Of a stretch of DNA of 64,000 nucleotides, positions 22,523-27,257 are shown piece by piece. The DNA comes from a virus. The notes beneath the pieces were generated by a model. That model was not told the origin of the DNA. It saw only the letters and a list, made by a program, of their open reading frames with translations, and did no database searches. The stretch covers positions 1 to 64,000 of IMG/VR virus record IMGVR_UViG_3300032677_000017. One strand, given 5' to 3'. How positions within the stretch are numbered: the first letter of the stretch is position 1; every line of letters starts with the position of its first letter. Position numbers and translations under genes: made by a program.

Positions 22523-22743
22523 TCCTCATCCTCGGGGTCTTCCTTTTTCTTCCCCTTGTGGGGCTCAGGCTCGTCGTCCTCATCCTCTTCATCGAGAATA
22601 TCGGCCAGTTCCAAGGCTGGGCGGCGCACATCGAACGGATCAACTCTTCCCTTGACGTAGACGCGGCATTTCTTCGCCCCGGTCTCCTGGATGGCAATGA
22701 TGCAGCACTCGCTGATAAACAGACCCTCTTCAACCTCGATCAT
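22513..22743 (-). CDS. small acidic phage protein
   Basis: 76 aa. The first 45 residues form a compact beta-like fold (EEGLFISECCIIAIQETGAKKCRVYVKG), and the rest is extremely acidic with a Lys cluster. ATG 22743 overlaps the stop of the giant protein gene (ATGA). It is the last gene of the virion operon on this strand. Function unknown. Confidence 0.6.
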   Translation of the reverse strand: MIEVEEGLFISECCIIAIQETGAKKCRVYVKGRVDPFDVRRPALELADILDEEDEDDEPEPHKGKKKEDPEDEDQS

Positions 22744-25700: not shown

Positions 25701-27257
25701 CAGCTCGGACTTCAAGAGGCTGCCATTCAGACCGGCAAACTTACGCGGCGTCTTGGGCAGGTTCACAAAGGCATCCCCACCCGGTTTCACGGCATCGCGG
25801 ATCTGATCGAGGGTTTTGCCAAGCATTTCCGGAGAAGACTGAACATTCAAGACGTTTGAGGCGTACACATGGTCGTACTTCCGGCTCAGGGCGTCAAAAT
25901 CATGAAAACCAGGCCTTGCATTGGAGCCAAAATCGTGCGCCGTGACATTAAGGCCCCTCCCTCTTAGATCGCGGGCGTGACCGGCATCCACTCCGGCACC
26001 AAAATCAAGAATCGACTCCCCGGGACGAGCGATAGAGGCCACATGCCTCGGCACAACAGCGTTTTTCCCAACCGCGCCAGAGGAGCGAGAGGTTTTGTTC
26101 GCAACAGACACATCCTCGGGGCTGAATTGGGGCTGAGGGGCCATCTTGGTATCAACCTTCCCCTCTATAGGTGCCACCGGAGCCTCAGATTTGACCTCTG
26201 TGGCCTCCGTGGAGGCTTTGGCTGGCGACATATCCTTCTTGAGGTGAGAGCCGCTTAAAAAGGCAAAAAGAGCATCCACGCTGGAGGTTGTAACCTCCTC
26301 GGAGAAGCTGATCGCATCACCCTTCTTTGCGGCTTTGACTGCCTTCTGGAACCCCTCGGCGGCCGACTTCGCCATGCTGTAGGTAAAACCAAGGTCCACC
26401 ATCATCCTGACCAGGCGGAATGGGGCCATTACCGTCATCAGGCCAATAAGGGCGAGATTCTCTGGATTGCTCAGGCCATCAGCAACCTGACGCCCGCCCG
26501 CCTCAACCCCGCGAACCATGTTGACCACCGACCAGCCGCGATCTTTGATCTCGTCAATCTTCTTCTGGTCGTTCGCGTTGTAGACGTTGATCAGGTCACG
26601 CAGCGGGCTGCTGGTCATCGCCTTATATTTCTCGGCCTCGGCCTCCGGTACACCCTTGCTGATCAGGTACTTCTTGTTTTCTTCTGGCGTGAGTTCCGGA
26701 CCGGCGTACTTTTCCAACCCCTTCACCAGCTTCGGCAGAAGCGGCTCCGACATGGCGGGAAAAGTCGCGTTCTCTATAGTCTTGACGTCCGGTGCCGGGG
26801 CCCCGCGCAGCTTCATCTGCCGCTGGTGCTCCGACTCCTCGGTGGTGATTCCGGTTGGAGTCGGAGACTTCCAGTGAATCTGACCCTTGTGCTTGGCGAT
26901 AGCCGCAGCAATATGCTCATCCGGCATCTCGTCCGGAAACTTCCAGGGAGACAGAATGTTGGACATGTGGAGCTGGCGCTGGTGCTCCGACTCCTCGGTG
27001 GTGATTCCGGTTGGAGTCGGAGACTTCCAGTGAATCTGAGCGGCGCGGCTCTTGGCAATCTTCGGAGACAGAATGTTGGGCATGTGGAGCTGGCGCTGGT
27101 GCTCCGACTCCTCGGTGGTGATTCCGGTTGGAGTCGGAGACTTCCAGTGAATCTGACCCTTGTGCTTGGCGATAGCCGCAGCAATATGCTCATCCGGCAT
27201 CTCGTCCGGAAACTTGACCACGCCCAACCCGTCCACCTTGACCAGCTTGTCGCTCAT
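22740..27257 (-). CDS. giant ejection-type protein: methyltransferase-like + GHKL ATPase + HExxH site
   Basis: 1505 aa. N-terminus: 'VKFPDEMPDEHIAAAIAKH' and 'QIHWKSPTPTG' repeats. About 418-424: DFGAGVD, a SAM-binding glycine-rich loop of class I methyltransferases. About 585-930: GHKL/Bergerat ATPase with N-box ELVQNAMDA, G1 DTGKGM (about 621-626) and G2 GGFGLAK (about 650). About 995: HEILHDTYKGH, a metalloprotease-like HExxH. The C-terminal ~350 residues are unassigned. The position among virion genes and the FPDxM motif suggest an internal protein injected with the DNA, acting in the host cytoplasm or envelope. Each catalytic role is inferred from short motifs only. Confidence 0.7.
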   Translation of the reverse strand: MSDKLVKVDGLGVVKFPDEMPDEHIAAAIAKHKGQIHWKSPTPTGITTEESEHQRQLHMPNILSPKIAKSRAAQIHWKSPTPTGITTEESEHQRQLHMSNILSPWKFPDEMPDEHIAAAIAKHKGQIHWKSPTPTGITTEESEHQRQMKLRGAPAPDVKTIENATFPAMSEPLLPKLVKGLEKYAGPELTPEENKKYLISKGVPEAEAEKYKAMTSSPLRDLINVYNANDQKKIDEIKDRGWSVVNMVRGVEAGGRQVADGLSNPENLALIGLMTVMAPFRLVRMMVDLGFTYSMAKSAAEGFQKAVKAAKKGDAISFSEEVTTSSVDALFAFLSGSHLKKDMSPAKASTEATEVKSEAPVAPIEGKVDTKMAPQPQFSPEDVSVANKTSRSSGAVGKNAVVPRHVASIARPGESILDFGAGVDAGHARDLRGRGLNVTAHDFGSNARPGFHDFDALSRKYDHVYASNVLNVQSSPEMLGKTLDQIRDAVKPGGDAFVNLPKTPRKFAGLNGSLLKSELEKRFGRVDKIGGTADAPMFKVSDPQDGSGVQEARSSEGKLKLGADPAALGKLLGSSLYGSNSSMVITKELVQNAMDAVRGESGDKNVTVSVDDYEHTIQVKDTGKGMTKNELETVFTDLGSSGKRDDVTASGGFGLAKAAPLMMSKSIKVTTVVNEGGSLYRHTFEATPEDLLGGGVDIHTEKLSTPEPTGTSVLCKLPDNAYMYGAYEYLGSSRLSLRPPATIKVISNGHEVGPEEAKQLPSAPDSTEHYQGADMDLYISKVKGDKAFDRWNKLNVEVHNNGIYQFMMYMDVPEGVRGLPSRVAIDVHATVPEGNPDYPFLLNRESLRDEASSDIKKLIQERVIDPVVQGHRNTVAGIYNSLPTFKGRKDIPLFDSGQRFTLEEMKEISANAQVIKIASKIQSLARGAIDMLKGSEIHGTGSGIDRIGIVFSDKVHGVYIPNPADTSKATIFIDPFNQIGENPYQAASSVWHTIKHEILHDTYKGHNQSFTTGEVRIARSLGEMEVKALNELRKIYADPNDSTRIREDLSGPLQIYRESRGRSESSPDIFGGEELRSEMAHARGQQGGDGGVHPGGEVPVPGFHQNLIYRSADLDQPFFNKIYVDPNTAGPKEVAAAKKELEEISEQLKKMAPPETPDAQFGTDKWLKRHQDWMRANLPLVLKRDMAVKKYLDLDGRGLGEVRKSSDGTKIVFLSRKGLRALNTTFDGKENLDYESRGCSISPDAYKHYFNQAKIMNPPEELNKLLRIGQNYDGGAIVSFLPRGEKIHSVLAVLREELNHKWQESLVKIRMNLGLLSVYGMKEMDKSIPKPLELYLETNGYPDKSDMSENGVEQRVFEATAKLMSDKPSEFGLTVDEATAYLLKFFQQVYREYGVQGFQKLTHTTNAVRRLKEGFIDEARKPKPDWASLRKTDPGVVGRVRSAGAQWNKKGSSGPGDGTAALKVGGSVKGFVNSNESFELLDSTLLTDADKAKLDELREKLRSFQ
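26822..27215. repeat. in-frame tandem duplication in the giant gene
   Basis: A ~60-nt block (TGCTCCGACTCC...CCAGTGAATCTG) occurs three times near 26828, 26986 and 27104. A longer ~118-nt unit carrying the FPDEMPDEH-coding part occurs at 26822-26940 and 27094-27212. Near identity at DNA level points to a recent duplication. Confidence 0.85.

What the first reader, a model, noticed from the sequence alone, without database searches (positions are those of the whole stretch)
22740..27257. Single 1505-aa ejection-type protein fusing methyltransferase-like, GHKL ATPase and HExxH protease-like parts
DFGAGVD (SAM loop), ELVQNAMDA/DTGKGM/GGFGLAK (Bergerat 4-motif ATPase) and HEILHDTYKGH (zinc protease-like) occur in one virion-module protein that also has the FPDxM repeats. 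GHKL ATPases of the MORC/Hsp90 kind in an injected virion protein are unusual and could disable host defence or remodel DNA.
Basis: partly seen in the sequence, partly recalled or inferred. Interest (0 to 1): 0.7.

Follow-up and report, generated by a model that had tools for sequence, protein, structure and literature searches.

The report
Phage ejection-type protein with HSP90-like ATPase-protease
A phage gene at the end of the particle-building operon encodes a large protein, probably injected into the host, that joins an HSP90-like ATP-driven clamp to a zinc protease; the same pair recurs in about twenty other giant phage proteins and, as far as I could find, has not been described as a unit.

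Summary
The ORF is real: minus strand 22740-27257, 1505 aa, with the named motifs. It is the last gene of one minus-strand late block that runs terminase, portal, major head protein, tail and ejection genes, and it overlaps by ATGA the gene upstream, whose product resembles P22 gp16-like and Zobellviridae internal virion proteins.

The GHKL part is HSP90/RIIA-like rather than MORC-like. The HExxH part is a genuine zincin. Together they form a conserved dyad. Profiles built from it recover about 20 distinct giant phage proteins (2.1-5.4 kaa). All loci found with the zincin alone also carry the ATPase, except one contig truncated just upstream. HMMs built without this protein still hit it (E 1e-49 and 1.2e-10). 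The zincin model is closest to the DNA-protein-crosslink protease Wss1 (Z 8.9; suggestive only).

Relatives carry polyvalent-protein domains (LPD38, ART-PolyVal, helicase). The 2017 polyvalent-protein text mentions no GHKL, HSP90 or RIIA. Best reading: an injected polyvalent-type effector with an ATP-driven clamp coupled to a protease. Virion presence, activity and target are untested. The methyltransferase fold is supported but specific to this protein.

The parts
22740..27257 (-). whole ORF P0001, 1505 aa, 165 kDa, pI 6.7; ATG overlaps the stop of the upstream gene (ATGA)
26796..27257 (-). N-terminal repeat region (aa 1-154): FPDEM x2, HWKSPTPTG x3
   Evidence: TRF; self-repeat score 95 vs at most 34 in the rest of the protein; HW.SP shared with P0003
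25623..26060 (-). class I SAM-methyltransferase-like domain (aa 400-545); not found in the relatives
   Evidence: Pfam Methyltransf_23 E 1.1e-6; no match in relatives
24666..25610 (-). HSP90/RIIA-like GHKL ATPase plus middle domain (aa 550-864); E588, N592, D595, D621, G625, K643, G651, G654, K657, R844 invariant in 21 rows (G623 nearly)
24060..24641 (-). zincin domain (aa 873-1066), H996-E997-x-x-H1000-x5-H1006-x3-F1010; family fold closest to Wss1/WLM
22743..24059 (-). C-terminal region (aa 1067-1505), no relatives found; contains EELNHKW, a degenerate HExxH-like motif (aa 1296-1302)
27254..29317 (-). upstream gene P0003, 687 aa: aa 133-231 like P22-type DNA transfer proteins and Zobellviridae IVP-C; three H[WF].SP motifs
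29317..31641 (-). P0004, 774 aa, candidate internal virion protein
   Evidence: position; weak PHROG virion structural hit E 0.04
47196..48170 (-). major head protein (same strand block)
   Evidence: PHROG 9953 E 3.3e-22
53533..55356 (-). portal protein (SU10-like)
   Evidence: Pfam PF23899 E 1.7e-11; PHROG 1216
55947..58160 (-). terminase large subunit
   Evidence: PHROGs 5989 and 6681; tblastn

Best explanation
P0001 is an ejection-type, polyvalent-style phage protein: made late, packaged, and delivered with the DNA. Its core is a coupled unit of an HSP90/RIIA-type ATPase (Bergerat N domain plus middle domain with a catalytic-type Arg) followed by a Wss1/WLM-like zinc protease. Most likely mechanism: inside the new host, ATP binding closes the clamp on a protein or protein-DNA complex and presents it to the adjacent protease. 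The target is probably a host protein that obstructs or attacks the entering genome. Shown here: the anatomy, the conserved dyad, the conserved catalytic residues and the late-operon position. Inferred: virion packaging, injection, ATP-gated proteolysis, and a host target. The MTase is an added activity of this protein alone.
For: Dyad: all loci retrieved with the zincin-only profile carry the GHKL domain upstream at E<=1e-60, except L058, whose contig starts 27 aa before the zincin. Leave-one-out HMMs hit P0001 at 1e-49 (GHKL) and 1.2e-10 (zincin) at Z=1e6. Independent finds: L043 scored 2e-133 against a profile that did not contain it, and an Acidobacteriota-genome giant (L074) aligns to P0001 aa 556-1097 at E 2e-40. 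ATPase and protease residues are invariant. HSP90 relation by profile (E 8e-15) and Foldseek (TRAP1 E 7e-16). Zincin model pLDDT 83, pTM 0.82, with Wss1 top by Z (8.3-8.9). Late-block position, and the relatives sit at the end of long co-directional gene blocks. LPD38, ART-PolyVal and a Strawberry-notch-type helicase in relatives.
Against: No proteomics: packaging rests on gene position and on the neighbours' homology. The zincin-WLM link is weak by sequence (Pfam best E 0.0011, PDB E 0.07-0.14) and Z near 9 is only moderately above YbeY (7.6). P0001 itself carries no LPD domain. Coupling of ATPase to protease is inferred from co-occurrence only.
Confidence: 0.45

Rival explanations
1. The zincin is mainly an autoprotease that cuts the giant protein before packaging or after injection, as Iyer et al. 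propose for polyvalent MPTases; the GHKL clamp times or positions the cut.
For: The founding paper proposes self-processing, citing P1 DdrB cleavage (PMC5512222). Most dyad proteins are 2-5 kaa chains with many domains.
Against: P0001 is only 1505 aa and still has the dyad; no cleavage site could be identified; a dedicated ATPase is not needed for simple autoprocessing.
Confidence: 0.25
2. It works like RIIA: an ATPase that counters an abortive-infection type defence, here pre-loaded in the virion instead of made early.
For: RIIA is the best PHROG and phage tblastn match; profile-profile 98.6%; RIIA is described as a poorly understood counter-defence protein with a GHKL domain and a variable C-terminus (PMC7824862).
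Against: RIIA rows form their own clade (100/99) apart from the giants; RIIA proteins examined lack HExxH except one short odd frame.
Confidence: 0.15
3. The GHKL part is a carried HSP90-like chaperone that refolds ejection proteins after they pass unfolded through the tail, with the protease clearing misfolded ones.
For: Nearest relatives of known structure are HSP90, TRAP1 and HtpG N-M domains; ejection-type proteins are the neighbours.
Against: No HSP90 C-terminal dimerisation domain seen; no test of client binding; I found no precedent for chaperone-protease pairing in injected proteins.
Confidence: 0.12
4. Structural role only: a large late protein whose enzyme folds are relics.
For: N-terminal repeats and late-operon position.
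Against: ATPase and protease residues stay invariant over rows that are only about 25-30% identical to P0001.
Confidence: 0.03

Closest known systems
Phage RIIA (rIIA) proteins, T4 and Schitoviridae
   Same: GHKL ATPase with the same N-terminal layout and the [SN]RE arginine
   Different: RIIA is a stand-alone protein and here a separate clade; the longer ones examined lack the zincin; P0001 sits in the virion block
HSP90 / HtpG / TRAP1
   Same: N domain plus middle domain by profile and fold; Arg in the middle domain
   Different: no C-terminal dimerisation domain; a zincin follows instead; phage-encoded and embedded in a larger chain
Polyvalent proteins of phages and conjugative elements (Iyer et al. 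2017)
   Same: large multi-activity protein, late-gene context, zincin; relatives have LPD38, ART-PolyVal, helicase
   Different: GHKL/HSP90/RIIA not mentioned in that paper's text; P0001 has no LPD domain; the zincin has a His (or Glu) six residues after HExxH
Wss1/WLM and SPRTN proteases
   Same: HExxHx5HxxxF pattern; best fold matches
   Different: no significant sequence match; here fused behind an HSP90-like ATPase
MORC / MutL-type GHKL ATPases
   Same: GHKL superfamily
   Different: NCBIfam and PDB profiles prefer HSP90; Arg in [SN]RE downstream; no MORC accessory domain detected

Membership tests
GHKL ATPase superfamily | N box (E..N), DxGxG, glycine-rich GGxGxxK | tested here: met
   invariant or nearly so in 21 rows; Pfam above cut-off
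HSP90-like group | best profile and fold match is HSP90 N-M, with the middle-domain Arg motif | tested here: met
HSP90 proper | C-terminal dimerisation domain and HSP90 equivalog score | tested here: not met
   36.6 bits vs 455 needed for the HSP90 family equivalog; no such domain found
Phage RIIA | falls inside the RIIA clade | tested here: not met
   RIIA rows one clade, 100/99, without P0001 (some long branches)
MORC ATPases | MORC-type GHKL/S5 with accessory domains | tested here: inconclusive
   PDB top 60 all HSP90 family; no MORC accessory domain in Pfam; S5 lysine not tested
Polyvalent proteins | several disparate enzyme domains in one chain | tested here: met
   MTase-like, GHKL, zincin
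Polyvalent proteins | phage late-gene (portal-terminase) context | tested here: met
Polyvalent proteins | LPD or PolyVal-type domain | tested here: not met
   none in P0001; present in relatives L032, L056, L059
Polyvalent proteins | packaged in the virion and injected | not testable with these tools
   needs proteomics
WLM / SprT zinc proteases | HExxHx5HxxxF active site | tested here: met
   P0001 996-1010; third ligand His in 17 and Glu in 5 of 22 rows
WLM / SprT zinc proteases | significant family profile or fold match | tested here: inconclusive
   Pfam best E 0.0011 below cut-off, PDB E 0.07-0.14, Z 8.9
SAM methyltransferase (class I) | motif I and Pfam score above cut-off | tested here: met
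   28.9 bits vs 27; substrate unknown

The most novel reading that the evidence does not exclude
Phages carry a pre-made, ATP-gated DNA-protein-complex protease: an HSP90-like clamp fused to a Wss1/SPRTN-like protease that is injected with the genome and strips or cleaves host proteins bound to incoming DNA, a general anti-defence device spread across diverse giant ejection proteins.
Probability: 0.2. Interest if true: 0.85.

Novelty: new variant of a known kind. Interest (0 to 1): 0.62.

Why it matters
Injected multi-domain phage proteins are a known theme, but an HSP90/RIIA-type ATPase obligatorily paired with a zinc protease is a new recurrent module, absent from the text of the founding catalogue and not found in 50,697 deposited phage records at the sensitivity used. 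It gives a testable handle on two open questions: what GHKL ATPases of the RIIA kind do for phages, and what the zincins of polyvalent proteins cut. If the Wss1 likeness holds, phages would have a counterpart of eukaryotic DNA-protein-crosslink proteases.

Tried and rejected
Close relatives by single-sequence patterns of P0001 and P0003: none in viral contigs. Phages with a related terminase: found, but the matching records appear to end before this gene, so nothing can be said. Deposited phages and plasmids: RIIA/HSP90-type GHKL only, no zincin match. First AF2 model of the whole P0001 module: ATPase usable, zincin part under pLDDT 50 and not interpreted. The zincin was then modelled from relative L036, not from P0001, so that fold is transferred by homology. 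One BFVD model (A0A516L4L2, 1404 residues, E 6e-9) probably has the same zincin but could not be identified. N-terminal motif sharing with neighbours, suspected as a packaging tag: only the HW.SP motif of P0001 and P0003 stands out; other giants do not share their N-terminal repeats with neighbours. Acidobacteriota scan: 1 of 396 genomes has the module, so host assignment stays weak. C-terminal 440 aa: no homologue found.

Full report
WHAT IS THERE. All named motifs are present at the positions given above. An open frame of this length by chance is about 1e-26. The record is an 83,019-bp IMG/VR virus contig.

CONTEXT. The minus-strand block reads terminase (55947-58160), portal (53533-55356), major head protein (47196-48170), a further structural protein (41774-42472), a large 1442-aa protein, then P0006, P0004, P0003 and P0001. 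P0003 contains a domain shared with P22-like 'DNA transfer' proteins and Zobellviridae IVP-C. P0001 starts by ATGA overlap with P0003. This places P0001 among ejection-type proteins. It does not prove packaging.

ATPASE. Pfam finds HATPase_c_3 and HATPase_c above cut-off. The best phage matches are RIIA proteins. NCBIfam prefers an HSP90 family model, far under its equivalog cut-off. A profile of 21 rows finds HtpG and TRAP1 first in the PDB, E 8e-15; all 60 rows shown are HSP90-family proteins. Foldseek of the model finds TRAP1/HSP90 N plus middle domain, E 7e-16. R844, in LNRESL, is invariant in the 21 rows, matches [SN]RE in 10 of 11 RIIA proteins and lies where HtpG has NVSR. This is HSP90/RIIA-like, not MORC-like.

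THE DYAD. A profile of P0001's ATPase with two RIIA proteins pulled out a phage frame of over 4600 aa (L016; 5371 aa in L038) with the same ATPase followed by a zincin. Two rounds of profile search then gave more giants, a Deltaproteobacteria MAG contig (L043) and, with the zincin alone, 20 loci. In every one of these with upstream sequence the ATPase is present, E<=1e-60, always before the zincin, with a linker of 9-186 aa. Counting near-identical contigs once there are about 20 distinct proteins. P0001 is the smallest. HMMs built without P0001 still find it: 1e-49 and 1.2e-10 with Z=1e6. An Acidobacteriota genome contig holds the closest relative found (L074, 2817 aa; E 2e-40 over P0001 556-1097; tree support 99/94). 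In the tree the giants' ATPases do not form one clean clade against all cellular rows; the exceptions include long branches.

ZINCIN. Motif HExxHx5H[x]3F; the third ligand is His in 17 and Glu in 5 of 22 rows. The AF2 model of the relative L036 is good (pLDDT 83, pTM 0.82). Foldseek gives Wss1 at prob 0.72-0.89 and SPRTN 0.84 but E>0.09. VIA-align 2 puts Wss1 first, Z 8.3-8.9 over 102-111 residues, rmsd 2.5-2.9; then YbeY 7.6 and SPRTN 6.3. Pfam WLM hits 5 of 9 members, best E 0.0011, below cut-off. Viral structures add SprT-like and WLM proteins. I call it Wss1/WLM-like, unproven.

KINSHIP WITH POLYVALENT PROTEINS. Relatives carry LPD38, ART-PolyVal, and in L033 a Strawberry-notch-type helicase with a ParB domain, and they end long co-directional gene blocks. 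The founding paper's text does not contain GHKL, HSP90, histidine kinase, rIIA or gyrase; MORC appears only in a reference title. It treats zincins as probable self-processing or effector peptidases. RIIA is described elsewhere as an ill-understood counter-defence GHKL protein with a variable C-terminus (PMC7824862).

MECHANISM. Shown: domains, conserved residues, pairing, gene position. Inferred from established HSP90 biology: ATP-driven clamp closure. Inferred from co-occurrence: the clamp feeds the protease. Inferred from polyvalent-protein biology: injection and action on host proteins. The Wss1 likeness suggests DNA-bound protein targets; that step is the weakest.

METHYLTRANSFERASE AND ENDS. 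The MTase-like domain (aa 400-545) is just above Pfam cut-off and is not shared by relatives. The N-terminus is repetitive. The C-terminus (1067-1505) has no homologues found.

VERDICT. The new point is the conserved HSP90/RIIA-like ATPase-zincin dyad in giant phage proteins.

Noticed in passing
L032, L035, L059, L060, L067, L069, L070 (N-termini of the giants) and window 26796-27257: Several dyad giants begin with a short motif repeated two or three times (for example FTTFTPL, WWENDPI, LDLDAIGR, PDQDFIDAV), scoring above all or nearly all other windows of the same protein; possible virion-targeting tag.
   Followed up: partly
window 27254-29317 and 26796-27257: P0003 and P0001 share the motif H[WF].SP, three copies each, in no other of the window proteins translated.
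   Followed up: partly
L043:5898-6242: A polypeptide deformylase domain (E 4e-36) is in frame at the C-terminus of the Deltaproteobacteria-MAG giant, cut by the contig end.
   Followed up: no
L033:1316-15163: 4616-aa protein joining a Strawberry-notch-type helicase, a ParB domain and the GHKL-zincin dyad.
   Followed up: no
window 19082-20545: Protein with a von Willebrand A-like region matching a phage RNA-binding family (PHROG 850, E 9e-9), downstream of P0001; possibly Ro60/TROVE-like.
   Followed up: no
window 23352-23372: Degenerate HExxH-like motif EELNHKW in the C-terminal region of P0001, perhaps a decayed second zincin.
   Followed up: no
L008, L009, L010: A 100% identical terminase occurs in three further IMG/VR records, so this phage or a near-identical one was assembled several times; P0001 was not found in those records, which are fragments.
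   Followed up: partly
window 21535-21610: tRNA-Ile with anticodon AAT, an unusual anticodon for bacteria.
   Followed up: no
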